A model generated the notes under the pieces. The model searched no databases, was not told where the DNA came from, and saw only the letters and a program-made list of their open reading frames with translations. Below, piece after piece: positions 1 through 28,276 of a stretch of 64,000 bases of DNA. Position numbers and translations under genes: made by a program. Source of the DNA: Bimuria novae-zelandiae CBS 107.79 (Eukaryota > Ascomycota > Dothideomycetes > Pleosporales > Didymosphaeriaceae); the NCBI GenBank assembly GCA_010015655.1, contig ML976738.1, forward strand, positions 245,971 through 309,970, read 5' to 3'. Position 1 is the stretch's first letter. Every line of letters begins with the position of its first letter.

Positions 1-1654
1 AATTTAAGAGGATAAGAATTAAAGACTTCCTTACTATTAAGTATAATGCCTATAGTAAAGTAAAACTAAAATAGTAAATATGCTAATAAGCTAGGAAGCT
101 AACCAAAGGCGCTAGTAAGCAAGTTATAATTAATTTTTATTACTCTAAAGTAGATAGATTAATAAGAGAGAAAAGCTAAATACTAATTATTAATTAATTC
201 TCTAGTTTTATATAGAACTTTTACTTTAAGGATAACTGCCTAGCACGTTTAATTATTAAATTACTTAGCACCTTTATGCTATTTATAAAAGTATAATACA
301 GTATTATAGTAAAAGTAGTTAAATCTAATAATAAGATCTTCTTTATTAAGGTAGACGTTAAAAAGTAGTACTTAGTATATAGGATGAAGATTAAGCCTTT
401 AGTACCTAATATTTAAGTATAAAATAAAAGGGCTAAATACTTAAGGAGTATAATAAAAAAGAAAGCGGGTATAATATAACTTAACTTTAACCTACTCTAG
501 TAAATAGTCTAAGATTACTTAAGCTATAGTCTACCTCTATAGTTAAACTTTAAACTACGCTAATTAATAGTAATCTCTATATAAAGTATTCTTTGTAATA
601 GTAGCTTTCTAGAACGGCGTTATTACTTAATTAAAGAAGCTAAATTAAGCTTACTTAAAATCCTATAGCTATAAGGCCTTTACTATAACTAATAATACTA
701 AACGTGGTAAAGGTAAACTCTAGTACCTAGATCCTAAAGCCTAAATAGGCTCTCTAGTTAGCTATAAATTGACTAATATTTAAAGGATATAGATCCCCTC
801 TTTAGTGAAGATATTTAGTACTCGCGACGTAATATTTGACAAGGATAGTATATTCTTAGATAAAACTAAAAACTTAATAAATAACTTTATATATAGTATA
901 TTAGAAGAAATAGTAGCCTAGGTATAATTAGTAAAGTTACCTTTTTTTACTTTAATAAAAGTAAGCTACGAAGTCCTTTTTTAAGAATAAAATAATTAGG
1001 AAAGTGCTAAAGGGAGAGGTTAAATAAGCTTTTAAGTATAAGTAAGATAAAAAGTTAAATATAAGTATTTAATACTTTCCTTAATACTACTACTAGTAAT
1101 ACTTCTTATATAAGTAATAGTAGTAGGCGATTAAACTAAACTAACTCTAATAGTATAGACTATATAATAATAAATAAGTCCTTAGGCAGCTGCATTTCTA
1201 GCAGGTATAAAAGCAGGACCCTATAGTTTTATTAATAAAAAGACGCTTAATAAGGAATAGCTAAAGCGCATAATTATTACTAGTAAGAAACCTTACTAAA
1301 GTATAATACTAAAACTACCTACTTATAAAGATAAATTTAAAGATTGTTTACTATATTACTTATAGAAAGTAGCCAAGAACTCCTATTTTTAAAATTACTA
1401 TAAGATAAAGTCTTAAAGTAAGGTAGCTACCTCCTAAGTAAAAGTAGTAGGATATTATATCCTTAATTATATATAGGTTTATACCTATAAGTTTAATAAA
1501 TACTATTAACTATAAAAGTGTACGACACGACTAGTTATAAAAGATAACTAATAATAGTACCTTACCTTATAAGAAATCTATGCTATAATACTTATAAAAT
1601 AATCCTTTTATATGCTTATAGTAATTGTAGCTTAGTTTAACCTTAAGCTTATTT

Positions 1655-1932
1655 AACACGACGTTACTAACCCTTTCGTTCACGCAAAACTAGATAGAGA
1701 AATCTACATGAGAATGCCCCGCGGTTACTCTCGAGCAGGCACAGTCCTCCAACTACACAAAGCACTCTACGGACTGCGCATATCTCCAATACTTTGGCAG
1801 AGAGTGTTTACATCAACGCTCCACGATATTAGTTTTAAAATAGTGTCCTACGGGCCATGTTATCTTATTAAGAATAGTATTATTACCTTTTTTTATGTAA
1901 ATAACCTTATTATTACTTATAATAAGTTATAA
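1655..1932 (+). pseudogene. Copia reverse transcriptase fragment (less-mutated island)
   Basis: A 74-codon open stretch from 1708 encodes part of a Copia RT: MPRGY, then KALYGLR and the tract reaching FYVNNLIITY. The first aspartates of the YVDD box read N-N, a change explained by GAC/GAT to AAC/AAT. Bases from about 1655 to 1866 have normal GC and ordinary codons, while both sides are extremely AT-rich. This is a remnant of the surrounding Copia element and not an independent gene. Confidence 0.8.
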
Positions 1933-2987
1933 AAGTAAGCTGCTAAAGCTACTTTAGTAAAAATGAGTACTAAATTTATACTTATTAGTAGTAAAAACCT
2001 ATAGTAGTTTTTAGGAGTTAAAATTATTAGAAACTATATAAATAGAAAAATCTAGCCTTTATAGACCTTATATATTAACAAGATCTCGTGCCTTATTAAG
2101 CAATATAAAATATAATATAAAATATTTAGAGTAGTTGTTAAACTACTTTCTTAAACTAGACTCGCTAGTAAGGCTATAGTTAATTAATATTAGTAAAAGA
2201 TAAGATTAATCCTATACGCTAGTATAACTATGCGACTAAATATTACTTTTATAAGTTTTTAACTATTATAATTTTTAATAAACCTAAGTAAAGCCTACTA
2301 AGTAGCTACTAACTAAGTTTTCCTTTACCTTGCTAATACTAGATTACTAGGTCTTTAGCTTAGGAGTGTAGATACTTTAGAAGTAGCAAGAGGTATATTT
2401 TTTTACTAATAATACGCTTAACTACAAGAGCTCACAAGGATATATTATTAAGCTATTTAGTAGCTTAATTATATAGAAAGCAAGCAAGCAAGACATAGTT
2501 ACTATATTAACTATAGAGACTAAATTACTAGCTCTCTTGCAGGTTACTAATAAGGCTTTATTTACTTTATAATTATTTAGGGAGCTGAAAATTAAACTTA
2601 GTAATTTTCTTATTATAATTAATTATTATAATTAGTAAATAATTCAACATATTACTAAAGAGATTATTCAGTTATAGACTAAGCTCTAGCATCTAGATAT
2701 TTATAATTATTAACTAAAATAAGAGGTTGCACTAGGGATAATTAAGGTAAAATATTAATGCTTAGAGTATATAGTTATAGATAGACTTATAAAGGCCCTA
2801 CTACCTAATAAGTAGAGCAAGTTTTTAAATAAACTAAGACTTATAAAGATTAAAGATAAGATTACTAATAAAGAGGTTAACCTGCTTAATCTAGAGTAGA
2901 GGATAATGGCCTCTAAAATTAAACTATAAAACTATTTAATTACTAATAGATACTCTATAGCTTAAGTATAAGCTTAAGCTAAGGGGG

Positions 2988-3200
2988 TGTATCTAATTAT
3001 ATAGTCTTTTACACTGATAAGGTGGCTAGCGCACCTATACCCTTATATAAGATACATTCCTTCCTTGCATTCCATAGCAAAGCAAGGGATGTCCTTATAG
3101 TTATATAGATGCTACCTCCTATAGTAGGAAAAACGGCAAACAATTAATAATCATTTTTCTATCTTATCAAGAATACCCTTTAATCTGACAACCTTATACA
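2988..3200 (+). repeat. 3' LTR of the first Copia element
   Basis: The segment starts TGTATC directly after a polypurine tract (aaggggg, 2981-2987) and ends TATACA, so it has TG...CA ends and is about 213 bp long. It is less AT-rich than the internal region. No 5' partner is in the window, so the boundaries rest on the tract and terminal dinucleotides only. Confidence 0.65.
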
Positions 3201-4400
3201 TCCCTTCCATAGGCGAGCTTATAATTATGTTATGGTAGCAATAGTTTAAAGTCTAGATAGCTACCTACTTAGTATAGATAAGGTATTAATTTTCTTATAA
3301 GTATCTATAGAGTTCCTACTAGTAGATATAGTCTTTAATTAGGTTATTCTACTTAACTAGAACTCTAGCGGCCTCTTTATATAAATAAGCTGCTATAGTT
3401 AGAATATATAGTTTAATATAATAGCCTTTTAAACTTGTTAGAGGTACCTAAGTTTATCGCTTTATAAACGTAGCCTAGTGTTTAGTAATTTTTTACTTTT
3501 CTTTTTTTATCCTGCTATTAGCGTCCTGCTAGGTTTATTAGGCCATTGTCTAGACGTTCTTATTAATATGCCATACGTATAATAGTTAAGGGATACTTAA
3601 GAGTGGTAAGTAAGCTACTATCTTTAAAGCCTCTTTTTAATCGCTAAGAAATACATATAGTAGTTTTACTTTTATTTTAAGAAAAAAGTTCGTAATATCC
3701 TATTAGTAGTCTGCTTACGTTTTACTGCTATGGAAGTAGAAACCTGCAGAGAAGAAAGTCTATAGATTAGTATAATAAAGAATATGCAATAATAAAAGTT
3801 TATATCTATTTATTTAATATATATAGTCTATTAGTAGTACGTTGGAATTGGCAAGACGTAGCTCCACTTACTTTTCATAGGCAAAGAGGAGATTTTATAC
3901 GTAATTATAATCATCTTTTTTTATAGTAAAGATTTAGTCCGTAGTAGATAGATTATTTAGTAGTATCTTAATAAAATTTCTCTTATTTAAGTATTTTGTT
4001 AATTACTTTCCCCTCCCTTTAAATATTAGTTATAGAGACTAGTATGTTTTAGTCTTTTTTTTTATTATAGCTAGTATCTACATCGGCCGCATCCTAGTAT
4101 AGGTTATTAACTTAATTACCTTCTTTTATATTAATATATGATTATAGTAGATATTATACACACTAGGATTAATAGATTAAAGATAATTATAATGTTAATT
4201 TTAAATCTTTAGTTTTTATTAGCTACTAACCTTTATCTTAAAGATAATGAGCTTAAAGGGACATCCTATTAACTATATACTTATACTTAAAATCTTTATA
4301 GTTAACTAAAAGTTACTCCTAAAGTAGTTATAATAGTAGTAGTAACGCGTTTTAGTAATTAAATTATAAGACTAGCTCTGCTTAAGGATAAAGCTATAGC

Positions 4401-4469
4401 TATCCCATGCACTGGTAAAGTCGCCCGCACACGGACCACCTTAAGTAGGCCAATCAGACGATAGTTGCT
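4401..4469 (+). repeat. Left terminal inverted repeat of piggyBac-like copy 1
   Basis: It pairs with the reverse complement of 6621-6689. Shared blocks are TATCCC at the tip and CCCGCACACGGACCACC in the middle. A TA dinucleotide is present at both outer edges. Confidence 0.75.
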
Positions 4470-4555
4470 TGGCAACACCAAATCTATCGTAATGTTAATA
4501 ATTTCGATTTACTGAGTAAAGCCTACTATATTAATAATTACTAATATATGCAAAC

Positions 4556-6540
4556 ATGCCTAAAGCTGCAGGTCTACCTAGCAATGACGCTGAATTAGTT
4601 AGATATACTAGGTATAGCAAGAAAGCTGGTGTTTTACCAGATCTGCCGCGCGTGCCGCCACCCGAATAGCAACCTCTCCCAATTAACAACCCACACAAAT
4701 TTGGTGAGCCTTAGATCCTTAAGGGTACTAATATTGGGTCTCTAGTTGCCTTATTCGATCTTTTCTTTAACACTAATGTCCTCGACCGAGTCGCGTACTA
4801 TACAAATCAGCATGCTGAGCACGTAGAGGCAGGCCGACTGTCAACACCAGCAGCGCGTCGCTGGAAGCCTACATCACCGACAGAGCTCTATACGTACTTT
4901 GCAATTGTTATCTATATGGCCGTCCACAAGGAGCCCTCGCTGGTAGAGTACTGGAGTCGACTTCACAAATCTGCGCCTACACACAAAATCAACGAGTACA
5001 TGTCGCAGTCGCGATGGGAGCAGCTAGACAGATACCTATACTTTACGCAGCCAGATCAGGCCTTCGTGACTCTATTTAAGCGCGTCTAGGATCTCTTAGA
5101 GACGCTCCGCCAGCGCTTCTTTTAGTATTTGATACCTAGGCAGCACCTTTGCGTTAATAAAGTAATTGCTAGATTTACAGGCCACGCTAAAGAGATTATT
5201 ATAATTAAGATAAAGCTAACGCTAGAGGGTTACAAGATCTAGTGCTTAGCCAATAATAGAGTAATACTAAACTGGTTATTTTATGCTAGAGGTAGAGGGC
5301 CTGTTAACTTACTTATACCTGCTGACGCGCCTGCTTTTACGCCTATAGAATCTGTCCCAGTCACTCTTGTACTTGCCGCTAACGCTGCCGGCCGTCGCCT
5401 GTTTGCGCCAAATCTCCATACTGTCTGGGACGATAATCTCTTTAATACGATACCTATGCTTGAGTACCTAAGATCGTATGGCGTAGGATGTGCGGGGACT
5501 GTTAGGACAATAAGGACAGCGATAGAGGAGAGATTTAAGGCTTTAGTAGAGGCAGAGTTAAAGGTAGAGGCACTAGTAATCGCGACGCGCGCGCGCTCGA
5601 AGTTAATAAAAAAGCGTTTTAGCAGCGATCTAATAAGGCTTAAGACTTAGTATACATAATAGATGAAGTGGGGAGAGACCTACTAGGCTCTCTTGGAGGG
5701 CAAAACAGTACTGTAAGCAGCCTGGAGAGTTAACTAGGTTGTCTTGTTTGCCTTAACTATTACTGAGCGTGAGTTTCTGCCCTTAACACTATGCTAAGAC
5801 CTACTAACAAGAGTCGCCACTTAGTAACTTAACTTATTATAAAGCTCCGCCGATGCTCTAAGTTAACCTAAAATAATAAGAAAATCTTTAAGAAGGCCTT
5901 TAGCAATAAGCCTGTTAAGTTACTTAGTATACCTAAGATAATAGACTAGTATAATTAGCACAAAAGTAAGGCAGATTAATTTAATTAAGTTAAAAGCTAC
6001 TATAGTGTTTAGCAAGTCAAGAGGCGTACATAGAAGCCTCTCTAGTACTTTCTACTAGATCTTACACTAAACAACTGCTACCGGCTTTCCTCTTACTCCT
6101 CTCGCGACGCTGCTCAACGTGGCGGCCACAAGCAGTTTCTATATACCCTTATTAAGCAGTTGTTTGAGCGCGGGAGACGTCTCACATCTGGCTCACGAAA
6201 ACGAGCGAGACTTGACGACACGATTGTCTCTGAGGAGAGCTCTCACAGGTCGGCAAAGCTATATGGAGAGTCTAAGAGTTGTGTCGCCTGCGCTGAAAAT
6301 GGGCGTACAGCTCACAACTCTCAGACCTCTCAAGCCTCTCGGAGACCTCTAGGTCATGCTTCTGGCAATTCACAGAGATCTCAGTGTCCTCAGCGCTCTC
6401 CGCGTACGTACTATAGCTGTACGCTCTGCCGTCTGCCACTCTGTAGGGCAGAAGTACGCCCTGAGTGCTGGCAGGAGCACCTCCGACGGCATCAAACGAT
6501 CAAGACAACAGCTCCAAAAGACGACTCAAAAATCAAGTAG
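4556..6540 (+). pseudogene. piggyBac-like transposase (DDE_Tnp_1_7), RIP-inactivated
   Basis: The start at 4556 (MPKAAGLPSN) matches the start of the second copy (MPNPAS). The frame then carries MSQSRWEQLDRYLYFTQP, WDDNLFNT and YLRSYGVGCAGTVRT, the last being a piggyBac-type block like the family's LRxxGIxATGTVR. The C-terminal part has paired cysteines (CVACAEN, then SCTLCRLPLC and CWQEHLRRH), fitting the cysteine-rich end of this family. Many in-frame TAG codons stand where CAG is expected, the first about 37 codons in, and the frame shifts near 5800-6160. No functional protein can be made. Confidence 0.8.
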
Positions 6541-6620
6541 TCTTAGATCAGTACCTCTCACAATGCAATCGCCATACAAATTTGTACACAAAGTTCATCT
6601 TTTGTGGTTTTCTGCCAAGT

Positions 6621-6689
6621 CGGAGCTATCCTCCGATTGGACCTCAGCAGGTGGTCCGTGTGCGGGTGTTGTTAACGGTTCAGGGGATA
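6621..6689 (-). repeat. Right terminal inverted repeat of piggyBac-like copy 1
   Basis: Reverse complement matches 4401-4469 imperfectly over about 69 bp. It also resembles the 3' end of the second copy near 44926-44995, which confirms that this is the element end. Confidence 0.75.
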
Positions 6690-6930
6690 CTATATACTAT
6701 ACGTCTTAAGCGCGTCATATGCTTCTTTATAGGAGCCGTAGAGCAGGTCTGGAGGTGGGGTTATACCTTCTATGTTGTCTATAAACAGGAGAATAAGTTA
6801 CTACCTCCCTCCTTAAAAGCTATCTATCTAAGTAGAGACGCGTGGTGTCGCGATATTATCGCGATAGTGTCGCGTCTATAAATTACGCGCTAAACTAAGT
6901 TAAGGCGGTAACTTTCGCTAACACTAGCGT

Positions 6931-6984
6931 TGGGGACAAATCTCATCTTGGGGACAAATCTCAAAACGCTAGGGACAAATCTCG
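6931..6984 (+). repeat. Three short direct repeats of (g)gggacaaatctc
   Basis: Three copies of a 13-14 bp unit occur at 6932, 6950 and 6971, separated by short different spacers. They lie just beyond the MULE N-terminal fragment. They could be subterminal repeats of a transposon end, but no partner was found at the other end. Confidence 0.5.
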
Positions 6985-7782
6985 CCAGCCCTTTTGCCGA
7001 TAATACATACAATACTGCGCGCAGGTGGATGACTAATTTGCGCCAAGGTTTGTACCACGTCATAAGATTCCAGATCCGTTCCGATCGACACCGGAGAAAC
7101 TCTCGGAAAGTGTGTCCCTAGACCTGAATGCCCCTCTGAACGGATTGAGGTATTCTGTTACTATGGCCCCGTCTTCCTGATACTCCGATTCTCTGAGGCA
7201 TGCCTGCCATCTTGATCTGACAGGGTTGCACAAGCAAAGCAGAGACTGATGGCGCGAATGGAAACATGTATTTTACAATCAAAATCCGCGAGTGCGCAGT
7301 GGCTCTTCAGTACCCAGGTGCAGGAAGGCCTTAAAAATAATATTGTATAGGCTGCACCCTAATTATCTTCTTGAAAAGGCTTTCTATAAGGTGTAATTGG
7401 AGATGCGGCTCGCGTCGTAGGGTGGCTCGTGATATGGGGATGGATGTTACATCGTTCACAAGTGCAAAGCATTTGAAGTTGGAACTCATAAGGTCACATC
7501 AAAGTAAGAAGGTCGCCAGAAACGTGTCACGGCACGGGATGGTTTGTATTGGCTCGAAGTCTAAGTTGGTATACCTTTTGCCTCTCATCCTGTCATTTCG
7601 GCACACTCCTCCACGAGGGTCTTCTCCTCCAAAGCATGTACAAAGGTCTGACAAAGCACGTAAGAAACAGACGGAAGGGCTATCTTGTCTGCCATCGGCA
7701 GGCTCGAATGGATTGTCCACTGTGTAGGGCGAGTGGCGGTTGGTTTGAAACGCTCGAAGACTGGTTGTGATGCTCAGTTTGG
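6985..7782. other. GC-balanced intergenic stretch, no supported gene
   Basis: Short open frames on both strands overlap one another and show no recognisable motif, signal peptide or intron pattern. This is probably the 3' flank of the peptide-precursor gene that starts at 8905 on the minus strand. Confidence 0.5.
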
Positions 7783-7857
7783 CTAGACGAGAGCGGCGCT
7801 GCTGAAGCCACGGGCCTTCAGAGCCTCGATAAGACCGCTCGCCTAGGTAGAACGCTT

Positions 7858-8905
7858 CTAGTTAGACCTGAATCCGAGCTCGGCTTCAGCTTCAGCTTCG
7901 CGCTTCTGGTTGGACCTGAATCCAGGCCCGGCTTCAGCTTCAGCTTCGCGCTTCTGGTTGGACCTGAACCCGCGAGCTTCAACTCCTGCAACAGAGCGCT
8001 GGTTGGACCTGAACCCAGGCTCGGCTTCGCGCTTCTGGTTGGATCGGAAGCCGCGTTCTTCAACGGAGCGCTGGTTAGACCTGAAGCCACGTGCCTCCAG
8101 TTCCTGGTCCTCCTCGCTGTCCTCGTCCTCCTCGCTGTCCTCGTCCTCTTCGACAGAGCGTTGGTTCCCCCTGANNNNNNNNNNNNNNNNNNNNNNNNNN
8201 NNNNNNNNNNNNNNNNNNNNNNNNNNNNNNNNNNNNNNNNNNNNNNNNNNNNNNNNNNNNNNNNNNNNNNNNNNNNNNNNNNNNNNNNNNNNNNNNNNNN
8301 NNNNNNNNNNNNNNNNNNNNNNNNNNNNNNNNNNNNNNNNNNNNNNNNNNNNNNNNNNNNNNNNNNNNNNNNNNNNNNNNNNNNNNNNNNNNNNNNNNNN
8401 NNNNNNNNNNNNNNNNNNNNNNNNNNNNNNNNNNNNNNNNNNNNNNNNNNNNNNNNNNNNNNNNNNNNNNNNNNTCCTCGTCCTCCTCGCTGTCCTCGTC
8501 CTCTTCGACAGAGCGTTGGTTCCCCCTGAACCCGCGTGCCTCGACAGAGCGCTGGTTGCCCCTGAAGCCCCGAGCCTCGACGGAGCGCTGATTGCCCCTG
8601 AATCCGCGTGCCTCGACATGCTCTTCCTCGTCCTCGTCCTCAACGGATTGTACATCAACGTTGATGTCCTCTGAAACAGACCGGGCCTTGTTGTTTGCAC
8701 GGAATCCACGCTTCTCTACTTCCTCGCTATCGATGTCGCGCTCCGAGAGATCCCGAGTGTCCGAAGTGATGTGACCATCACTGCTTCTGAAGAAGCCTCG
8801 CTCGTTGACGAAGGTCTCGAGCTGGTTGGGTGTCTGCACGGCGTCTGGAACTGGAGCGGCGAGTACCGAAAGAGCAAAGGTGGCGATGACAAATGCGGAA
8901 CGCAT
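7858..8905 (-). CDS. Secreted repeat-peptide precursor with Kex2/Ste13-type motifs (KEP-like), gapped
   Basis: The start at 8905 gives a clear signal peptide (MRSAFVIATFALSVLAAPVP, cleavage likely after residue 16-17). A VEKRGFRANN unit and three ARGFRGNQRSVE repeats with acidic EDEDSEEDE spacers follow, then an assembly gap. Beyond the gap are more units: ARGFRSNQ, ERGFRSNQKREAEPGFRSNQ and GFRSNQKREAEAEA. KR followed by EA dipeptides is the arrangement in alpha-factor-type precursors cut by Kex2 and trimmed by a dipeptidyl aminopeptidase. The repeated core is GFR(S/G/A)NQ. The frame ends at a TAG (7858-7860) in the middle of a repeat; the same frame continues with KRST, a second TAG and LIEALKARGFSSAALV before TAG at 7783-7785. 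The core lacks the Trp/Cys residues common in ascomycete alpha pheromones, so a KEP-type signalling peptide of unknown role is the safer call. Frames before and after the gap differ by one. Confidence 0.75.
8175..8474. other. Assembly gap (300 N) inside the repeat-peptide gene
   Basis: Exactly 300 undetermined bases lie within tandem repeats. The round number and the mismatch of reading frames on its two sides suggest a placeholder length. The sequence just before the gap is duplicated just after it (GNQRSVEEDEDSEEDE), so repeat units are probably missing or collapsed. Confidence 0.9.
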
Positions 8906-9654
8906 ATCGACGGTGTGGGATATCTAATTTAGTATGGTTTTTTGGTGATGTTTGCGTGATATGCACAGCACGAAATAAATTAAAAGCACTAATAGTAGGC
9001 ACAGCCTAAGTGTAGAAGCTGAGTTCGAGTGAACGAGTTGGGAAGATCCAGATCCTCTGCCATATCAAACATGGGAATGAACGCACTTTTATGCACCTGA
9101 GACGGAATTCGTGCTGCGATAAGAGATTTGGGGAATCGAGCGCTGATTGGTGCAACGGTTAAGTGACTCGATATGCTGAAGCGCTGGGTCCAGGAGTCGT
9201 ATCATGCATGCGATGCAAGCCTTGGAAAACAGGTGCACGGCTGGAGAAGCGAAGACAAAAATAGGCACCAGCTTAGGTTAGTATAGGCTAGTGTGGGTCA
9301 GCCACAGCAACAGTTTAGCCGCCGGTGACCATGCCATCGGGATCGAAGCACTAATCAATTGAGGTCTCGTGGACCTGCTTAGCCAATACGCAATCGTGCA
9401 CGTCCCCTAATACCCTGGTATCTTGTGCTCGCTGCAAGGAAGTGGCTGGAGTCTAAGCGCCGGGCTTTATTGCATGAAGCGTAAGACACTTTGACTGGCC
9501 TGGAGTGCATTCATGGATAAGGGTTGGTGGAATGCCACCTCCAATGAAACAGCAGGCACGATATTGTTTCGGTGAAAAAGGATGCAATTTGTGTCATATT
9601 CAGAAGGTAGGTCGATAAGCCACCTGCTTGCACGCGGCTTCAATGTGATGAAGT
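8906..9654. other. 5' flank of the peptide-precursor gene, no gene seen
   Basis: GC-balanced sequence. A minus-strand 81-codon frame at 9467-9712 has no recognisable feature and overlaps a repeated segment (9655-9705). Promoter elements for the gene at 8905 presumably lie here, but none is distinctive. Confidence 0.4.
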
Positions 9655-9705
9655 ACTGTGGTATCAGGCAAAAGTAAGGTGAATGGCCCGCGCACAGCAG
9701 GGGTG
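9655..9705 (+). repeat. 51-bp inverted repeat, left arm
   Basis: The reverse complement of 25396-25446 matches this arm with two mismatches (both A/G). The arms lie in non-RIP sequence at the two outer edges of a 15.7-kb transposon block. Similarity stops abruptly on both sides. Confidence 0.85.
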
Positions 9706-9846
9706 TTGCCAAGATGCCAAGCTATGTAAATTTCGCACGCTTGTCCTCTTTTATATATAAATTTTAGTACCTAATATAACTACTTTTTATATTAATTGTA
9801 GCCTAGTATCTAGCTAGTACGCTTTTAATAAGCTTTTTAAATATTT
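9706..9846. other. AT-rich debris before the Copia element
   Basis: Composition changes to RIP-like at about 9745. No coding trace is readable. It ends with the TATTT target duplication (9842-9846). Confidence 0.5.
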
Positions 9847-10088
9847 TGTTGAGAATATATGGGTTCAGTCCAGATTGGTGGAAGGTAGGCTTGTGGTACT
9901 TGCTGTACAGAAGAGTGCCAAGCCTGGTGGTCCTTGCTCGATTGTACAGATTGTACCTCACGATAGCTTGTTTAATCTGGTACGCAATACACGATAGTTA
10001 ATATAATATATTATAGCTACCTTACCTTGTCCCTTACCTACTTAGTTATTTATAGTAATTATACTACTAGAGAGATTTTGTTCTAATA
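9847..10088 (+). repeat. 5' LTR of Copia 9847-15276
   Basis: Starts TGTTGAGAATAT and ends TTCTAATA. It aligns over its full 242 bp with 15035-15276, differing mainly by C/T transitions. Confidence 0.95.
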
Positions 10089-10102
10089 GGTTATAAGCCT
10101 AG
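10089..10102 (+). other. Primer binding site, half-tRNA-iMet type
   Basis: Directly after the LTR is GGTTATAAGCCTAG. With two C/T- or G/A-type changes this is GGTTATGAGCCCAG, very close to the Copia site that pairs with the anticodon arm of initiator tRNA-Met rather than its 3' end. The Copia at 37463 carries GTTATGAGCCCGG at the same place. Confidence 0.75.
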
Positions 10103-10124
10103 TTACTAACTAACGTTATTATTT

Positions 10125-10310
10125 CTCTAGAGTCGCGCAGGACTTAGCTATAATTTATAAAAGGAATTAGTTAGTACTAGAGTTGCGCAGGACTTAGATT
10201 TAAGAAGGAATTAAACCTTAAGAGTCACGCAGGACTTAGCTACGATTCGCGAAAGGAATTAGTTATCGACTAGAGTCGCGCAGGACTCAGATTCAAGCAG
10301 GAATCAACTT
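10125..10310 (+). repeat. Tandem leader repeats (about 50 bp, four copies)
   Basis: Four copies of AGAGTCGCGCAGGACTTAG, spaced roughly 46-52 bp apart, lie between the primer site and gag. Successive copies become less RIP-mutated toward gag. Confidence 0.75.
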
Positions 10311-10312
10311 CA

Positions 10313-10416
10313 CCTCATCGCCTGCATCGCCTGCATCGCCTGCATCGCCTGCATCGCCTGCATCGTCTGCACCACCTGCACCGCCTGCATCGCCCGCATC
10401 GCCCGCATCGCCTGCA
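10313..10416 (+). repeat. 9-bp tandem repeat (cctgcatcg)n
   Basis: About eleven head-to-tail copies with a few substitutions (cctgcaccg, cccgcatcg), just upstream of the gag start. The minus-strand frame here reads only Arg-Cys repeats and is a by-product. Confidence 0.9.
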
Positions 10417-10455
10417 ATCGACACATGTGAGCCTCCTCACGTCCGAACACATATA

Positions 10456-13400
10456 ATGGCCGAAGAGAAGGGACAGTGGGAGATTCCTAAACTCACAGCG
10501 GAGAATCATGATAGTTAGTTCCGCCAGAACAAAGTCAAGCTAAGAGGGAAAAGAGTCTTTTACGTGTGCGAGAGAAGCCTAGAGGAGCACTGCTAAATTA
10601 CTACTGCTAAAGACCTGTTAGATGCTGTGAAAGGACTAGATATTACAGATAATAAGACTGTTAAGGCCCGCATTAATATTAACAAGAGAGACAAGTACCT
10701 AGAGGACGAGGCAATTGTAATTAACCTTTTATTTAGATCTCTTAGCAATAATAACTAGGCCTTAGTTAATAAGTATAACACTGCCTTCTAGTTCTAGGCT
10801 TACCTGCGAAAGAAGTACACCTAAGCTAACGCTACTATCGCTAATATGTATATAATTAGGATCTAGACATTTATATTTAATTCTAAGAGCATAATTATTA
10901 GATTATAGGAAAAGCTAAAAGATTACTAGCGTAAGCTTGTCTTAGTAGACGCTAACACTAATAGAGCCTATAAAGATGCTGTATTACTACTTATTCTTAT
11001 TAGATTACTCCCTCTAAGTTTTAAGACTATAATTGACACCCTGAATGCTTAGCTTAACCTTACTGTTAAACAAAAGCTTAAGTTTCTGGAAGAGAAGGAG
11101 GTCCGAGACTAGCAAGATACTAATGAATAAGCTCTTCTAGCATTCCGAAAAGCCCACAAGTACGTTCCGCCCCACAAGCGAGGCAACAGGGAGCTGTTAT
11201 CCGACTCCGAACCTAGCGCTACGTCTGGTATCTAGTGCTACCTTTGCGACGAATCTCACTACATGCGAGACTGTTCAAAGCTTATAAAGGCTCGAAAGCT
11301 CCTAAGGGAATATAAAGCTAAAAAGAAGTAAAGGAAAAAGAAGCCGTTCCCTCTAAAGCTGCCTAAGCCGCCTATTAAGTCTAGGAAATCCAACAAAAAG
11401 ACTAGTAAAGTATATAGAGCCAAAAAAGAAGCTAGGTTAGAATTAGAGCTAGAGACATCAACTAATACCTTAGACTTAGAGGACGAGGAAATTGAGACAT
11501 GCCGTCTCTTAAAAGATATTATTAGTAAGGCCTCTCTATCTACCTAGGCTGGCGACACTGGCGCTTCCTCACACATGTCTAACCAACCCTTATTGTTTAG
11601 ACGGATGATCAAGATCAAGCGAAGACTTGTTCGGGTTAGAGGGGGAGAGTTATATATAGACTAGAAGGGAGAAGCTTAAGTAGTATATAAAGACGGGTCC
11701 TTAACATGGCTTTTAGATGTACTACTTATACCTAATCTTAGAGTTAATCTATTATTAGGGAGACAAATTTGCGTAGCAGGCCTAAAGGGTCGATTTAACT
11801 TAAATACACTGCGTTTCAAACTAGGAAAGAAGACAATTATTAAAGCAACTATAGACAACGGCCTCTATATAGTGTCACACATCGCTAATAGATACCGAGA
11901 GACAGCATTCCCAAGTACAGAACAGCATACACCAGCAGAATTTAACGAAACAGAATTTAAGGCTGGTAAAAAAGAGAGATACTTGCTATATTACAGACGT
12001 TTCGCACACCTGGGGCCTGCAAAGATCGCGAAGCTCCACGAAGTCACAACCCTCTAGAAGAAGATTTAAGTGCTAGAAAAGATGGAACTCTGCGAAGTCT
12101 ACGCCTTAACAAAGATAAGGAATAGCATCCCTAAGCAGCTAAAAGAGCATAAGGCTACAAAGCTAGCTTTAATACAGTTTAATATTACAGGACCCTTTCT
12201 AACATCTCTAAAAGGAAACTAATGGTTCCTCCTTATTATTAATAGCTACACGCGAAAGAACTGGGTTATCCCGTTAAAGTATAAAGGAGACGCATAAAAG
12301 GAACTTAAAGTCTAAAAGACCTTTATTAAATATTAAACTAATAAAAAGGTTAAAGCTGCTAGGACTAATAACGCACTAGAACTCTTACAATAAGTTAAGG
12401 AATAGAGAGTTATATAGGGAGTGGAACTGCAGCCTACTACAATTACGTTATTATATTAAAATAGACTAGCTGAGCGAAATATCTAAACTATAGAAACTAA
12501 CATAAGAGCAATGCTTAAGGACGCTAGTCTACTAATTAAGTTCTAGGATAAAGCTATAGAGGCAGACACATACATGCGAAACCGCACTAATACAGGACCT
12601 ATAATTAATAGAAAGCAAGTTAGCCCTAAAGAGGCTTTTACAGGAAAGACGCTATCTATTAACTATATTTATATATAGGGGAGCAAGTGCTACTCCTATA
12701 TTTACCTTAAGATAATTCTAGTAGATTAACGACACGACAAGCTTGTAGACCGCGGCAGAGTTAGAGTATTTATAGGCTATTCTAAGACAATAAATAAGTA
12801 GTTTAAGTTCTATTCGCCAGAGCTGGGGTACACATTAAGAACAAGCCGATTGTTAGTGGACGAAAACACCCCTGGAGGAAAAGTTGAACTACGACTGCGA
12901 AATATCCTAGCTAGACCACAAGGGACACAGAACATAATGCTAGACTGAAAACCAAGAGGAAGACCCAGGAAGGTTCTAGGGACTAATACTGGGACTAATA
13001 CTGAGGAAAACTAACGCCCTATTCTTGTTTAACTAGCGGAACCGATAGAGACAACTTCTGCAGAAACGATGGAACCAACTTCTATAGAACCGATGGAACC
13101 AACTTCTGCAGAACCGATGGAACCAAATTCTGCAGAACCAAATTCCGGGCTAATAAAGCGTAGAAGAGGAAGACTAAGGAAGCTAACTACTATTCCTCCT
13201 ATTGCCCTACCTTAAGACGAGCGAGTACCTGACTTGGTAAACGAAGAGCCTGGAAAACCTGTTAAAGTCTTGCCAGAAGCTCCACGATACTTTATAAGAG
13301 AGTCTAAACGCAAGAGGTCTAGCGAAGACACTATAGAAGATAAAAGATTCTAGAAAATTATTAAAGCTATGCTAGCACAAGTCGACTTTACGGACGAATA

Positions 13401-15027
13401 AGCACAGATTTTTAAGAAAGCTTTTCCAGCAACTAAGATTGCAGGAATTCGGATTCCCCAGACATATTAACAAGCTATCCACGACTCAAAGCACGGAAAT
13501 TAATAGAAAGCAGCAGTGCTGGAGGAGATAATTTCACTAATAGAAAATAGAACCTAGGAAGAAGTCTTTCCGGCAAAAGACGCGAACATGGTTGACTTAA
13601 AGTAGGTTTTTATAATTAAGACTAAGCCAGACAGGATAGTTAAACAATTTAAGGCACGCCTTGTGGCAAGGGGTTTCACCTAAGTACAGGGAATTAACTA
13701 CAACGAGACCTTTACGCCGACTATCCGCATAGATACCTTACGTCTATTCCTAGCCACTGTCGCAGCAGAAGACTTAGAATGTTTTTATTATAACATTAAG
13801 AATGCGTTTACTAAGTCTTACCTTAAGGAATAGATCCTCCTTAAGCCACCTAAAGGAGTTTATGTTAAGAAAAGATATGTCCTAAAAGTCCTTTAAAGCC
13901 TATACGGACTAAAGTAAGCTGCTCGAGACTAGAACCTATTAATAAAGAAAGAGCTTCTTGCATAAGGATTTGTACAAAGCCTAGTAGACCCTTGTATGTT
14001 TGTCCATGAGGAGAGAAAGATTTGAATCCTAGTCTACGTTAACGACGTCCTTGCAGCGGCAAAGGAACAATCTCAGACTAAGTAGTTCTAAAAGAAGCTT
14101 TCTAGACGATTCAACGCCAAGAACCTAGGGGAGGTACATAAAGTCCTTGGAGTGCGAGTTACAAGAGACAGAAAGCACTATATAATCTTCCTTAACTAAG
14201 AGTAATATCTACGCGCAGTACTTAATAAGTTCAGAATATTAAGTAAGAAGCATAAAGATAGGAAGATTCTATCTACTAATTACACCTTATTTAGGCCAAC
14301 TACTAATAATAACACCCAAATTAACATGACTAAGTACTAGCAGGGAATCAGAAGCCTAATGTTTACTATAGTTCTTACACGTCTAGATATTGTATTCACC
14401 CTTAGAAAACTGAGCTAATACATGAGCAATCCAGCAAAACACTATAGCCATGCATTAAAGAACCTATTACGGTACCTTAGGTTAATAGTTATAATAAAAC
14501 TACGCTACGGACTAGGGGGAGCACACTCACAATTTGTCGTCTACTTAGATACTGACTGGGCAAGCGATACTATAGACCGAAAGAGCGTCTTAGGAAGCAC
14601 TGTAATATTCTATAGAGGTCTAATATTATAGTCTAGTAAGAAGCAACAATTAGTTATAATATTAAGTTGCGAATCTAAGTATATTGCACTATTAACATGC
14701 TATAAGCAAGGCTAGTGGATTGCTTAAGTATTTAAAGACATTAGATTCCCAAAGTACATTAGAAAAGACACCAACAAGGTCTAAATGCTAGGCGACAATC
14801 AGGGCGCTATTGCACTTACAAAGAACCCTCACCTTCACGAAAAATTAAAGCATATCGATGTCTATTATCACTTTGTCAGGGACCTGGTAGAATAAGGCAG
14901 ACTTAATATAGCCTACGTGCCAACTGCAGACATGGTTACTAATAGAATAATAAAGCCTTTGTAGCGAGTGGCATTTAAGAGATTTAAGAACCAACTAGGA
15001 GTTATCTATAGACCAGACCTGTCCTGA
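10456..15027 (+). pseudogene. Copia gag-pol polyprotein, RIP-inactivated
   Basis: Gag starts at 10456 (MAEEKGQWEIPKLTAENHDS). A zinc knuckle CYLCDESHYMRDC lies near 11235-11275. Protease DTGASSHMS is near 11555. Integrase is spread over 11950-12700. RT near 13600-14070 has KARLVARGFTQ (TAA read as CAA), TFTPTIRIDTLR and the active strand YVNDVL. RNase H from about 14430 has YLDTDWASD and DNQGAIALTKNP, and the end reads NQLGVIYRPDLS before TGA. Dozens of TAG/TAA codons replace Gln/Trp codons. A single Gag-Pol frame is usual for this family. Confidence 0.9.
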
Positions 15028-15034
15028 GGGGGAG

Positions 15035-15276
15035 TGTTGAGAATATATGGGTTCAGTCCAGATTAGTGGAAGGTAGGCTTGTGGTACTTGCTGTATAGAA
15101 GAGTGCCAAGCCTAGTGGTCCCTGCTCAATTATACAGATTGTACCTCACGATAGCTTGTTTAATCTGGTACGCAATACACGATAGTCAATATAATACGTT
15201 GCAGCCACCCCGCCTTGTCCCTTACCTACTCGGTTATTCATAGTAGTCATACTACTAGAGGGACCTTGTTCCAATA
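15035..15276 (+). repeat. 3' LTR of Copia 9847-15276
   Basis: 242 bp, preceded by a purine tract and followed by the TATTT target duplication (15277-15281). Confidence 0.95.
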
Positions 15277-15931
15277 TATTTTACTTTTAATTAAGTCCTA
15301 TACTTTTTATATAATATTATATAGCTAGCTATATATACGCTACTTACTTCTAAGTAAATTAAAATAATACTACTTAATATAGTCCTTTATTTTATTTTAT
15401 ATTACCTTAATTAGGATAAGATCTAGCAAGAACGCTAGCTATAAAATAAAATATTTTTTTTTTAAAATTAAAAATTTTAATTATATAAGTAGTAGCGTTC
15501 TTAAGAGTGCTATCTGATATAAATTAATAATATAAATTAAGGTGTAGCTATCTATAAATAAGAGGTATAACTTTCTTATAATAGCTCTTTTTATTAATAC
15601 TCTTCTATTCCTTCTTTTAGAACACAGATAGCCCCTTCGTTGTACCTTAGAGGTAACCCTGGAATATCTAGCTACGCTTCTTACGTAGCTTCTTAATAAT
15701 ATAAAAGGGATCTAGTTCCTTTCTAAGGCGCCTAGTAATCCACTTTTTATAATACTAGCTACTAGTTACCTAAGTTTCGTTACTTTAGAGGATTATATAC
15801 TACTACTAAAGAGACTAGTTAGCGTAAGCTTCTGCCTATACGAGGCGTAGCTAATAATTCTTTTTAGTAAAAGGAGGCTTAGTAAGAGCAACGCAGTAAG
15901 TATATATTTTATTTTATAAAATATTTTAAAT
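15277..15931. other. AT-rich degraded repeat sequence
   Basis: Strongly AT-rich, no readable frame. It was continuous with 24972 onward before the pogo element inserted. Confidence 0.5.
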
Positions 15932-15933
15932 TA

Positions 15934-15976
15934 ACGTGGTTCACCACCGAGCGGGCCAACCCCACCGAGCGGGCCA
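15934..15976 (+). repeat. Left TIR of pogo/Fot element
   Basis: Begins ACGTGGTTCACC and pairs with the reverse complement of 24927-24969 with one mismatch. Confidence 0.95.
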
Positions 15977-16624
15977 ACTTTGCTAAATGCAGCCCACCTC
16001 CAGCTTATACCACAATGCCATCACAACATAACGCGCAATAACCTTATACTAAAAGCGCACTATAGCTTACTATTTAAGCTATAATTAAAGATCGCGATAA
16101 GAGTAAAAGACGCGTTATTATAGCCTTTAGCGTGCCTTAAATAATAGTATAATAACAACGCTAAGGAGCCCTCTCTTAACGCGATCGCGAGCCCAACTTA
16201 AAGAAGCTAACTAAGCTAGAGGAGGAGGCTCTAGTCCGACGTATACTTAAGCTTAACCAGCGAGGAATAGGTGCAACAAGGGATATAGTCTAAGATATGG
16301 CTAATAATCTACTTGCTAAGCGCGGTAGATAGCCTATTAGCAAGTACTAGATAGACAGGCTTAAGACGCGTACGCTAGAAATTAAGCTTTAAAGAAGCTA
16401 TTTATATAATTATTAGCAAGCCCTAAATAAAGATCTACGTATTATAACGCCCTAGTTCGAGCTGGTTACTAATACTAAGGCTAAGTACGGTATTGCTAAT
16501 AACGATACGTACAACTTCGACGAGACAGGCTTTATAATAGGGGTAATACAGGGTTAGATAGTCTTTACAGGCTCTAAGAAGCGAAGCAACCTAAAGAAGA
16601 TTTAATTTAATAACTATAAGTAAG

Positions 16625-25708: not shown

Positions 25709-28276
25709 CTATGGAATTGGTGACGATTTCGCATTCCAGGAAATAGGAGAGATGCTGTTTCCAGAAAATCTCCAACCTCCTTTGGACACCCACTTCACCT
25801 TGACTTCCTTTGCCTTTGCCCGTGGAGTTCCATGGGCCTTTGTCGATATCATCTTCTTCGACATGTCGTCGGGGAGACCGTATAGAAGCGTAGCAATGGC
25901 AGAGGTCTTGTAAATCCCAACGCTGTCGTGCTCACGTGAACTCCGAACGATAGTTGCAAGTAGGAAAATCCCGGTGAGGGTGAGCAGACCCAGAGGCAGC
26001 GTCAGCCATATCCATCGAACATCTACGATGCTTTCTTTGTCATAAGCATCGCCCTGCACCATTTTGGTGTTGCTGGCAGCTGAACGCATGACATTTGTCA
26101 TGGCTGAAGCCATGTGGTCGAAATGTGAAGAAATGTTCTCGTAAAGGAACGGGTTATACGTTACGCTGCGCGTTACTGGGTTGACAGTCTTGTACTGCTT
26201 GTACCGCAGCATCGCTTTAGCTGTGTCGGTGCTATTGATGAGTGTATACTCTGAGGGGAAAACATCATCGAACAGGGATACAAGGGCCGAGTGCGTGCGA
26301 TTGTCGATCTGATAGAGTGTATCGTTGACTCCGGTCAGGGTGATATTCTCTCCAAACGAGTAATAGTAGCCGAGAAGGTTGCCCTTGTCGTCTTTGACTG
26401 GATCCGCTCTCCATGCTGATGGCCCGTCGGTATCATTGATCACCGCCCTAGTCACGTTCTCGATGTAGCCACCTTCATTGTAGTCCGACTGGAGCGTTTT
26501 AGCGCTCCAAGAGATCATACATTCATTGGCGATGGGAGTCTCGTTCCTGTGTACGCGGTCCGAATCTAGACCAGAAACGATGACAACGTGGGCTAATGGG
26601 TTTCGACTATTGAGCTTTGGCTGGTAGCCAGGAATGAAGTCTCGTGTAAAGATATCGTAAAGTGGCTGAGCACGTACGAGCAAGATCTCCCCAGCGTTCT
26701 CAGTGCCACGATCTACGTCATAACCGGTCATAAGCAAAGGCGTATCTGCTTTGAGCCACCACCCACAGGCGGTGCCGTTCGGAAAGGTAGCGTCAGCGTC
26801 TCCTCCGCTTGGATCCACGATGGGGTTTTGGATCCAGTCGAGTGTTGTGTTGGTGCATTTGAACTCCACGCGATCGGAGGCATCTGAACAACGAGTATGA
26901 ATGCCCAGAGTCTCGTATTCGGGCCATGTGCAATTACTGTTGGGGCATCCAAGAGGTACCTCGGCCCTGACACCTTTGCCAAATGTCACAGGCAATTCTC
27001 CGTTGTTGTAAAAGAATCTGTATGTGATGCCCAACAAGCCTTGGTCAAGTTCCAGATTCTCCATTCCGGACTGATATTCTTTGCCCGCCGAGAACGGCTC
27101 GTAACCGGTTGCCGTGGGAATATAGCCACTGCCATCCTGTATGCGCCACTTCTCAGGATACTCAACGACTTGTTGGAAGAATGGATCGAGACACAGCGCG
27201 AATATCGTCACAGCAGCACCAAGTGCTGCAAGTGATCTGCCTTTGGTCCGCACAAGCAGGAGGAATGATCCCCAAGGCCCTCTAGATGCGTTATCGAAGA
27301 TCTCGAAATCCCACATCTTCTTCGATCGGGCACCTTGAAACCAACTCCATTTTAACTGGCCAAGAGCTTCTGACACAGGCAAGAGAAGTGCTGCAGAAGC
27401 AACTTTTGACAAAACAGAGATATAAGCGTTCAAGGTCAGACCAAGAGGCCATTTGGGGATGCGCCCATTCTGATGAAAACCAAGCATAATGAGGATCCCG
27501 GCCATGCAAGCTGCGCTTAATGTCCAGCTGATGATTTCCAGAAGCCATCTCTTAACCACGTTCCGCGAAGCGCTGTACTTCCACAGCTTCTGCTCAATGC
27601 GTTGAGCCCAGTTCGACGCCTTCTGTGATTCATCTTCTTGTGCTCCTTTCTCTACCGTGCCAGGTGTAATTGGGCTGGCGTCCGGTCTGAAGGGTACCTC
27701 AGCAATTCCGAGGCCAGCCTGAGTCTTATGGCTCCAGTCAATCTCATCGAACTCAGTGACCGTCGGAGATAGAGGGGAGAAAGCATTCCGACGAAACCGG
27801 ACGTTTGGTCTTCCTTTAGGGTCGAATTGAAGCGCTCGTGTCGGGGTCTGAGGTTTCGACCAGTGGCGAGGTGGCTCTACTGTGAGTACCGGTATGGTCA
27901 AATGTCGTGGTGATGGAGGCGGGGGTGGAGCCGGCGAGATTGAGTTGTACGAAGGAGGGGCGGGTGAGTGCGCCATTGATACACAATGAATCGGCGTATC
28001 TCGTGAGTTCTGATTGCAATTCGGACATATGTGTTCCGGAACATGCCTAGGGTGTAGAGAACGCGCGGAGTGTGCAGGAAGTGTCGAATTTATCGATCGC
28101 GCCGACCGTGTTGATTGTGCGGAGTCTGTGCAATGTGTTGAATCCGAAGATCCCCGTCGGTCTTCTTCGCAATCTTCGCCGCGATCTAGATAAATAGGAA
28201 TGTTCGGATTCGAGGACCAGTATGGCGATACTGGAAACCTGGGCATGTTGAATGAGGGCGTTACAAGTGACTGCAA
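25709..28276 (-). CDS. DUF3176 family membrane protein, intact, 855 aa
   Basis: A single uninterrupted frame. The N-terminal ~200 residues are low-complexity, rich in Ser/Pro/Arg, and likely cytosolic. Residues about 243-266 (SWTLSAACMAGILIMLGF), 279-303 and 347-368 (GAAVTIFALCLDPFFQQVVE) are hydrophobic segments; with the linking LGQLKWSWF and LLLVRTKGRSLAALGA blocks they match DUF3176, a fungal family of unknown role. A long presumably extracytoplasmic region with several N-x-S/T sites and paired cysteines (for example CPNSNCTW) follows, then a last membrane segment near 755-776. Two starts are possible (Met1 and Met11, MPRFPVSP). No intron is needed. Base composition is normal, so the gene has escaped RIP despite sitting 740 bp from a transposon block. 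Confidence 0.9.
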   Translation of the reverse strand: MQSLVTPSFNMPRFPVSPYWSSNPNIPIYLDRGEDCEEDRRGSSDSTHCTDSAQSTRSARSINSTLPAHSARSLHPRHVPEHICPNCNQNSRDTPIHCVSMAHSPAPPSYNSISPAPPPPPSPRHLTIPVLTVEPPRHWSKPQTPTRALQFDPKGRPNVRFRRNAFSPLSPTVTEFDEIDWSHKTQAGLGIAEVPFRPDASPITPGTVEKGAQEDESQKASNWAQRIEQKLWKYSASRNVVKRWLLEIISWTLSAACMAGILIMLGFHQNGRIPKWPLGLTLNAYISVLSKVASAALLLPVSEALGQLKWSWFQGARSKKMWDFEIFDNASRGPWGSFLLLVRTKGRSLAALGAAVTIFALCLDPFFQQVVEYPEKWRIQDGSGYIPTATGYEPFSAGKEYQSGMENLELDQGLLGITYRFFYNNGELPVTFGKGVRAEVPLGCPNSNCTWPEYETLGIHTRCSDASDRVEFKCTNTTLDWIQNPIVDPSGGDADATFPNGTACGWWLKADTPLLMTGYDVDRGTENAGEILLVRAQPLYDIFTRDFIPGYQPKLNSRNPLAHVVIVSGLDSDRVHRNETPIANECMISWSAKTLQSDYNEGGYIENVTRAVINDTDGPSAWRADPVKDDKGNLLGYYYSFGENITLTGVNDTLYQIDNRTHSALVSLFDDVFPSEYTLINSTDTAKAMLRYKQYKTVNPVTRSVTYNPFLYENISSHFDHMASAMTNVMRSAASNTKMVQGDAYDKESIVDVRWIWLTLPLGLLTLTGIFLLATIVRSSREHDSVGIYKTSAIATLLYGLPDDMSKKMISTKAHGTPRAKAKEVKVKWVSKGGWRFSGNSISPISWNAKSSPIP

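What the first reader, a model, noticed from the sequence alone, without database searches (positions are those of the whole stretch)
7858..8905. Secreted tandem-repeat peptide precursor with alpha-factor-like KR-EA processing sites
The sequence shows a signal peptide and many copies of a GFR(S/G/A)NQ core. C-terminal copies are separated by KREAEAEA, the Kex2 plus Ste13 processing arrangement known from yeast alpha-factor. Upstream copies are separated by acidic spacers and AR or KR. The core lacks the Trp/Cys residues usual in ascomycete alpha pheromones. Inference: a KEP-type signalling peptide family, possibly undescribed.
Basis: partly seen in the sequence, partly recalled or inferred. 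Interest (0 to 1): 0.75.

Follow-up and report, generated by a model that had tools for sequence, protein, structure and literature searches.

The report
Fungal multi-peptide precursor family, GFRSNQ member
A soil fungus carries a gene for a secreted protein that looks built to be cut into many copies of a six-residue peptide, and it belongs to a family in related fungi whose members keep similar outer parts but carry different short peptides, many with an arginine in the same place, so it may be an unstudied set of fungal peptide signals.

Summary
Window 8905-7858 (minus strand) encodes a signal-peptide-like start followed by 10 copies of GFR(S/G/A)N(Q/N), with KR-EAEP and KR-EAEAEA spacers. 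A 300-base assembly gap (8175-8474) splits the array; in-frame TAG codons end the last copy and interrupt a conserved C-terminal tail. The genome is Bimuria novae-zelandiae CBS 107.79, inferred from two contig lengths.

The finding is larger than reported. Bimuria has at least eight related precursor loci plus one array fragment. Five of the other seven share their upstream DNA with the window gene, yet their cores differ: INRING, ITRTANS, SVRGKAT, FGRGSHP. Relatives in Paraphaeosphaeria and Karstenula combine several such words in one precursor. Of 44 distinct Ste13-anchored cores, 27 have Arg at position 3 and 7 at position 4.

Best reading: Kex2-processed repeat proteins (KEPs) with Ste13 spacers, making linear peptides with a shared xxR head; function untested. 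Not a dikaritin RiPP by gene context, and not the published pleosporalean alpha-pheromone type. KEPs are known; this multi-core family was not found in the papers searched.

The parts
7858..8905 (-). KEP-type precursor coding region (ATG 8905; first in-frame stop after the array at 7860-7858); split by an assembly gap, so frames differ on the two sides
8855..8905 (-). predicted signal peptide MRSAFVIATFALSVLAA (by eye: short basic n-region, hydrophobic core, small residues before AP; no predictor run); similar to the starts of the paralogs
8516..8707 (-). 5' part of the array: GFRANN (8707-8690), GFRGNQ at 8605-8588, 8569-8552, 8533-8516; spaced by RSVEAR and acidic stretches
8175..8474 (.). 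assembly gap of 300 N inside the array; flanks share an identical 55-base stretch (8120-8174 and 8475-8529)
7858..8088 (-). 3' part of the array: GFRSNQ at 8088-8071, 8052-8035, 8016-7999, 7971-7954, 7923-7906 and GFRSN-stop at 7875-7858; contains the KR-EAEP, KR-EAEAEAGP and KR-EAEAEAEL spacers
7774..7857 (-). remnant of the conserved C-terminal tail (KRST.ASGLIEALKARGFSSAALV...) beyond the first stop, with further in-frame TAG codons; the tail is uninterrupted in two paralogs (C13, C4a) and in P. sporulosa proteins P0001 and P0003
8841..9266 (-). upstream region (promoter/5' UTR) and start of the coding sequence, homologous at DNA level to the same region of paralogs on C3, C4 (C4a, C4b), C13 and C35; the matches to C3 and C13 stop short of the ATG

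Best explanation
The locus encodes one member of a family of secreted multi-peptide precursors found so far in Didymosphaeriaceae (Bimuria, Paraphaeosphaeria, Karstenula). Shown: a signal-peptide-like start; a tandem array whose GFRxN core is kept at the protein level while its codons vary; Kex2-type basic sites followed by Ste13-type XA/XP dipeptides; paralogs with homologous upstream regions and similar starts but different cores; a recurrent Arg at core position 3; one kexin-type and three DPP IV-type loci in the genome. Inferred: after entry into the ER, kexin cuts after KR and after single Arg (EAR, GR, TR), a Kex1-type carboxypeptidase (not searched for here) trims the basic end, and a Ste13-type dipeptidyl aminopeptidase removes XA/XP pairs until it meets the core, releasing GFRSNQ/GFRGNQ-type linear hexapeptides. 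The xxR N-terminus is the shared 'message' and the rest of the core varies between members. The most likely role is an extracellular peptide signal (fungus to itself or to neighbours); the receptor is unknown. In this strain the gene has lost its C-terminal tail and lies in an island between AT-rich, RIP-like sequence, so it may be on its way to decay although the visible array is open.
For: Array and spacers. Core codons: over the G, F, R and N sites of 10 copies there are 11 nucleotide differences from the modal codon, none changing the residue; position 4 (11 differences, 4 copies with another residue) and position 6 (4 differences, 2 copies with another residue or stop) do vary. GFRSNQ and GFRGN also occur in P0001, P0002 and P0003 with different copy numbers and spacers. 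Paralogs: blastn matches upstream of or over the ATG between the window gene and C3, C4a, C4b, C13 and C35 at 68-76% over 123-317 bases; upstream-only scores above all of 200 shuffles for 5 of 7 window-versus-paralog pairs (misses: C4c, C14). A genome-wide DNA search with the window upstream region gave 3 places, all family loci (limits stated in the full report). Cores anchored after two or more XA/XP pairs: 44 distinct six-mers, Arg at position 3 in 27 and position 4 in 7; shuffling residues within cores gave a mean of 6.7 and a maximum of 17 of 44 in 20,000 trials. Kexin P domain 1 locus, DPPIV_N 3 loci. Literature: Ste13-signature KEPs are proposed as candidates for peptide hormones (PMC6339444, all of Results and part 1 of the Discussion read); for Coprinopsis KEPs expressed in Pichia, removal of XA/XP was seen by mass spectrometry and some products appeared to come from cleavage after single Arg (PMC9769878, abstract and passages).
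Against: No expression, peptide or phenotype data. Six of the 10 window copies are preceded by a single Arg (AR or ER), a weak kexin site (recalled), and the core itself holds an Arg that a monobasic protease could cut. After collapsing related cores the Arg-3 count is 12 of 28 groups (binomial P 4e-4), weaker than the raw count; some groups are misregistered, both against (EL-GFRS, ER-ISRN, EH-YSRA) and in favour (GKR from inside a C4b core). The last spacer ends in EL, not XA/XP. The window copy is truncated and gapped. No receptor was identified, so 'signal' is inference. Upstream similarity to the window gene does not exceed shuffles for C4c and C14. In P0015 the GFRGNT word follows another core without a basic site between them.
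Confidence: 0.6

Rival explanations
1. It is the alpha-type mating pheromone precursor of this fungus, binding the single Ste2 receptor.
For: Same precursor architecture (Kex2 + Ste13 sites); one STE2 locus found (C31); the pleosporalean pheromone motif PYG[L/M]P[I/V]G was not found by two exact DNA patterns, so the true pheromone was not located.
Against: Core lacks the PYGxPxG or two-Cys signature reported for Dothideomycetes (PMC6339444). At least eight loci carry many different cores against one Ste2 locus. Pfam gave no mating-factor match in the 12 family proteins scanned (P0001-P0007, P0009-P0012, P0014; the window's own pieces and C3, C13, C14 were not scanned).
Confidence: 0.07
2. Effector or antimicrobial peptides aimed at other organisms (plants, fungi, bacteria); core diversity reflects an arms race rather than self-signalling.
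For: Upstream regions are more alike than the cores, as in venom or host-defence peptide families (analogy, recalled). P. minitans carries several multi-core members and is a mycoparasite (recalled). Weak Pfam similarity of P0002 to the insect antimicrobial apidaecin (E 4e-4, below cut-off).
Against: Cores are short and by eye not strongly cationic or amphipathic (not computed); several core words are shared between genera, which an arms race alone would not favour; the apidaecin match (residues 197-207 of P0002) lies on the KR-DAEAEAEP spacer, not on the core.
Confidence: 0.25
3. Precursor of a cyclic RiPP of the dikaritin (ustiloxin/phomopsin) type.
For: Signal peptide plus Kex2-separated repeats is the dikaritin precursor layout; the genome is rich in UstYa-type matches (53 exon-level matches).
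Against: Among those 53, none is on C83, C4 or C35; on C3, C13 and C14 the nearest lie more than 150 kb from the family loci. Umemura gives an average distance of 3.09 genes (PMC7329392 abstract). Ste13 signatures are reported absent from the precursors of toxic cyclic peptides (PMC6339444). Only 3 of the 44 six-mers hold Tyr.
Confidence: 0.03
4. A decaying relic or low-complexity expansion without current function in this strain.
For: Truncated last copy, interrupted tail, RIP-like DNA nearby (TpA/ApT 1.76 at 1-4000 and 1.69 at 9700-10300 against 0.57 over 7700-8900), no ORF of 150 aa or more between 1 and 25.7 kb other than at this locus (introns ignored).
Against: The array stays open over all visible copies, and the core is kept through synonymous change; homologues in P. 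sporulosa keep the same core. DNA directly next to the gene (6500-7700, 8900-9700) is not strongly RIP-like.
Confidence: 0.2

Closest known systems
KEX2-processed repeat proteins (KEPs) with STE13 signature (Le Marquer 2019 PMC6339444; Umemura 2020 PMC7329392; Vogt 2022 PMC9769878)
   Same: Signal peptide, repeated short cores, KR/RR sites, XA/XP dipeptides ahead of the core. Umemura's type P-4 (Rhizophagus, Diversispora, Trichomonascus) also draws an Apidaecin profile match, as P0002 does.
   Different: Several paralogs in one genome with homologous upstream regions and similar starts but different cores; single precursors with several different cores; recurrent xxR head; many sites with a single Arg.
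Ascomycete alpha-type mating pheromone precursors
   Same: Kex2 then Ste13 maturation of tandem copies, EA/DA spacers.
   Different: Core sequence unrelated (no PYGxPxG, no Cys pair, no Trp); multigene and multi-core.
Dikaritin RiPP precursors (ustiloxin, phomopsin)
   Same: Secreted repeat precursor cut by Kex2.
   Different: No UstYa neighbours found, Ste13 spacers present, few cores with Tyr.
Multi-peptide neuropeptide precursors of animals and apidaecin precursors of bees (recalled)
   Same: Several related short peptides released from one precursor; EA/EP spacers in apidaecin precursors.
   Different: No sequence similarity seen beyond the spacer match; fungal; function unknown.

Membership tests
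KEP (KEX2-processed repeat protein) | N-terminal signal peptide | tested here: inconclusive
   Judged by eye and by similarity among paralogs; no signal-peptide predictor available
KEP (KEX2-processed repeat protein) | at least three near-identical repeats | tested here: met
   10 copies of GFRxN; tandem and direct repeats
KEP (KEX2-processed repeat protein) | dibasic KR/RR sites between repeats | tested here: met
   KR precedes 4 of 10 copies directly or via a dipeptide spacer; 6 of 10 are preceded by AR or ER only; the published pipelines were not run
KEP (KEX2-processed repeat protein) | actual cleavage by Kex2 | not testable with these tools
   no peptide data; a kexin P-domain locus is present
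STE13-signature KEP | XA/XP dipeptides directly after the basic site | tested here: met
   EAEP and EAEAEAGP in the window; 90 occurrences of the same layout across 23 family sequences or pieces; one window spacer ends in EL
Pleosporalean alpha pheromone | PYG[L/M]P[I/V]G or paired-Cys core | tested here: not met
   core GFRSNQ; signature from PMC6339444
Dikaritin RiPP | UstYa (DUF3328) gene close to the precursor | tested here: not met
   53 matches in the genome, none on C83
Apidaecin (PF00807) | Pfam gathering score | tested here: not met
   P0002 20.9 bits against 23.1; P0001 no match

The most novel reading that the evidence does not exclude
Didymosphaeriaceae use a combinatorial peptide vocabulary: dozens of hexa- to nonapeptides with a common xxR head and variable end, recombined between precursors under similar promoters and read by a set of receptors, a fungal counterpart of neuropeptide systems with message and address parts.
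Probability: 0.22. Interest if true: 0.85.

Novelty: new variant of a known kind. Interest (0 to 1): 0.58.

Why it matters
KEPs are widespread in fungi but most have unknown function. A family in which upstream region, signal peptide and spacers persist while the released peptides change, with one residue position often held, gives a defined set of synthetic peptides and a clear prediction (xxR is required for activity) to test whether filamentous fungi have non-mating peptide hormones.

Tried and rejected
Dikaritin RiPP cluster: rejected, no UstYa match near. Mating pheromone: not favoured; two exact PYGxPxG patterns gave 0 hits, so the real pheromone was not found and that comparison stays incomplete. 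Upstream homology as a transposable element: not favoured, 3 places only, all family loci, but that search skips very common words and also missed three loci that blastn relates (C4b, C13, C35), so it is not proof. Tail search in the large protein database: 6 candidates, none scored, although P0001 carries the tail; I take this as low sensitivity of a short region, not as absence. Search of the genome with P0009 added one array fragment on C3 (1226266-1228389) and weak places on C4 (155719) and C82 (296490); the C82 one I regard as chance (E 0.15) and the C4 one I did not resolve. Rfam, structure prediction and fold search were not used: short linear peptides give no useful model. Pfam on 12 family proteins: nothing over cut-off. 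Literature searches for six core or tail strings (one paper with INRINGR, unrelated by title, listing only) and for family or taxon terms (listings) gave no description of this family; supplementary tables of the two KEP surveys could not be opened, so an entry there is possible. On checking, I corrected the tail comparison: two of its seven differing positions lie before the shared tail, in unrelated core sequence, and are set aside; confidence was lowered slightly (0.62 to 0.60) for this and for the limits.

Full report
Observation. The minus strand from 8905 encodes MRSAFVIATFALSVLAAPVP and then a tandem array with 10 complete copies of GFR(A/G/S)N(N/Q): GFRANN once, GFRGNQ three times, GFRSNQ five times and a last GFRSN followed by a stop. 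Five copies are preceded by AR, one by ER, one by KR, and three by dipeptide runs after KR (EAEP, EAEAEAGP, EAEAEAEL).

What it missed. A run of 300 N at 8175-8474 splits the array and the frame differs on the two sides. The flanks carry the same exact 55 bases (8120-8174 and 8475-8529), so the stated gap length cannot be trusted and the copy number is uncertain. N gaps also lie in two other arrays of the family (C4a 183521-183815; C3 fragment 1226303-1227977). Downstream of the last copy a tail is recognisable, but TAG codons interrupt it. The same tail is uninterrupted in the paralogs on C13 and C4 and in P0001 and P0003 of Paraphaeosphaeria sporulosa; P0002 also ends before the tail. One search printed seven positions where C4a and C13 agree and the window differs; two of them fall before the shared tail, in unrelated core sequence, and do not count. 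Of the five inside the tail, three are transitions in the CpA/TpG context typical of RIP, too few to prove it. The stretch 7700-8900 has GC 0.59 and TpA/ApT 0.57; 1-4000 has GC 0.27 and TpA/ApT 1.76, 4001-6500 1.67, and 9700-16000 1.6-1.7, while 6500-7700 (0.99) and 8900-9700 (0.73) are intermediate or normal. So the gene sits in an island of a few kb between RIP-like blocks and has been damaged at its 3' end.

Species. Two family proteins of Bimuria novae-zelandiae CBS 107.79 lie on contigs of 713,565 and 1,612,603 bases, the lengths of C35 and C4 of this genome, and P0004 equals the C35 reading, so the window is from that assembly (inference). Bimuria, Paraphaeosphaeria and Karstenula are Didymosphaeriaceae, Pleosporales.

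Family in the same genome. Searches with the window protein and with a signal-peptide composite found loci on C3, C4 (three), C13, C14 and C35 besides C83 (in one search C35 and C13 are weak, E 0.05-0.06, and rest), and an array fragment without a start on C3. Their cores: C3 INRING, C4a ITRTANS, C4b FGRGSHP, TVRGPRPG and YIRGKPP, C13 SVRGKAT, C14 GGSRQSF, C35 NLRNQGQSHGPK and AISNES. C4b has an in-frame stop; C14 may have an intron after its signal peptide (GTGAGT at the break; not tested). Blastn shows the region upstream of the ATG, in part running into the coding sequence, to be alike between the window gene and C3, C4a, C4b, C13 and C35 (68-76% over 123-317 bases; the C3 and C13 matches stop before the ATG), up to 79% between C3 and C4a, and a tail shared by C83, C4a and C13 (77-85%). 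No match across the cores was reported at the cut-off of 1e-4; the last hundred or so coding bases of C3 match a stretch far downstream of C4a. Upstream-only comparison: 5 of 7 window-versus-paralog pairs exceed all 200 shuffles; C4c and C14 do not. C14 and C4c are tied in by blastn with C3, C4a, C13 or C35. A whole-genome DNA search with the window upstream region gave 3 places, all family loci. That search skips very common words and did not list C4b, C13 or C35, so it only argues against, and does not exclude, a dispersed repeat.

Relatives elsewhere. The 143-residue N-terminal part hit 3 proteins with E <= 1 among 698 candidates: two of P. sporulosa and one unnamed. A profile of five family members hit 14 with E <= 10 among the 7996 candidates scored (a capped list); the 10 with an organism name are all Bimuria, Paraphaeosphaeria or Karstenula. 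P0001 and P0004 were themselves in the profile, so their scores are by construction. Two rows are weak (P0014 E 0.13, P0015 E 2.3); I kept them because of their cores. One source labels P0013 as Pal1-domain-containing; its near-identical partner P0012 had no Pfam match. Several are multi-core: P0006 of P. minitans holds AIRNQT, AIKNES, ISRNTGSYR, GFTRAKP, LNRING and TIRGPR. Words recur across precursors and species: SVRGK in Bimuria C13 and P. minitans, FGRGSHP in Bimuria C4b and P. sporulosa, TVRGPR and YIRGKPP in C4b and an unnamed protein, AIRN in P. minitans, Karstenula and two unnamed. P0015 holds INRIN, GFRGNT and INRGA words in one precursor, though its GFRGNT follows INRINP without a basic site.

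Core rule. I started each core at the end of a run of two or more XA/XP pairs after K or R in 23 sequences or pieces (15 database proteins and 8 typed pieces, some near-duplicates). Runs beginning in the first 23 residues or leaving fewer than six residues were excluded by the script and not counted. That gave 90 occurrences and 44 distinct six-mers; Arg is at position 3 in 27 and at position 4 in 7. Shuffling within cores gives a mean of 6.7 and a maximum of 17 of 44 in 20,000 trials. After merging cores with the same first three residues and the xNR set, 12 of 28 groups have Arg at 3 (P 4e-4); misregistered groups exist on both sides of that count. Related sequences are not independent, and I had no set of unrelated Ste13-type KEPs as a control, so these P values are guides. 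In the window array, 11 nucleotide differences at the G, F, R and N codons change no residue, against 19% of single changes expected to be silent; at positions 4 and 6 residues do change. Copies are related by duplication, so this too is a guide.

Machinery. One kexin P-domain locus (C59), three DPPIV_N loci (C95, C59, C11) and one Ste2 locus (C31) were found. Kex1 was not searched. Of 53 UstYa matches none lies on C83, C4 or C35, and none within 150 kb of the loci on C3, C13 or C14.

Interpretation. The architecture, core conservation and relatives support a secreted precursor of short linear peptides. That the peptides act as signals is inferred from the Ste13 signature, which Le Marquer and co-workers link to hormone-like KEPs and report absent from precursors of toxic cyclic peptides, of epichloecyclins and from Rep1 (PMC6339444, Results and Discussion part 1). 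Single-Arg cleavage, needed for 6 of the 10 window copies, is suggested by products of Coprinopsis KEPs expressed in Pichia (PMC9769878, passages), but the internal Arg could then also be cut. Two products named there, QMRPPSW and QYKAPSW, also have a basic residue at position 3, a resemblance only. Umemura reports KEP types with many copies per strain, some nearly identical (PMC7329392, section 6 part 1); that part does not mention a family with changing cores, and I did not read the rest of the section.

Novelty. KEPs with Ste13 sites are known. New here, as far as the searches show, is a family with homologous upstream regions and similar starts, changing cores, multi-core precursors and a recurrent xxR head. 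Supplementary tables of the KEP surveys were not available.

Noticed in passing
window 1-6500, 9700-16000, 58001-64000: AT-rich blocks with strong RIP-type dinucleotide bias (TpA/ApT 1.6-1.76) lie on both sides of the gene island.
   Followed up: partly
window 25709-28276 (-): ORF with DUF3176 (PF11374, E 1.7e-34).
   Followed up: no
window 32203-34476 (+) and 36641-37486 (-): Fungal protein kinase PF17667 (E 7e-142) and a second protein kinase ORF.
   Followed up: no
window 45232-45768 (-), 51585-52925 (+), 53817-54446 (-): Transposon-related ORFs: DDE_Tnp_1_7, DDE_3 with a Tc3-type HTH just below its cut-off, and a chromodomain ORF; a 927-base N gap at 46000-46926 lies near.
   Followed up: no
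window about 10310-10415: Short tandem array of a GCATCGCCT-like 9-mer, next to spaced repeats of a gagtcgcgcaggact-like motif (about 10130-10290), seen in the raw sequence.
   Followed up: no
G000 C149 and C184: UstYa-type matches in equal or nearly equal scoring pairs on two contigs, in a genome with 53 exon-level UstYa matches; looks like a duplicated or twice-assembled cluster.
   Followed up: no
G000 C3:1226266-1228389 (L049): INRINGREAEP array fragment without a signal-peptide start in frame, running into a 1675-base N gap, about 6 kb from the C3 member.
   Followed up: partly
L036/L031: C83 -935..-749 and C3 -752..-566 relative to each ATG: A 187-base stretch 88% identical between the far upstream regions of the two genes, more alike than the near upstream regions; possibly a separate small repeat.
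   Followed up: no
L031/L029: C3 592..911 and C4a 1829..2149 relative to each ATG: A 323-base match (73%) between the end of the C3 gene and a stretch far downstream of C4a; the C-terminus of the C3 frame may come from a repeat.
   Followed up: no
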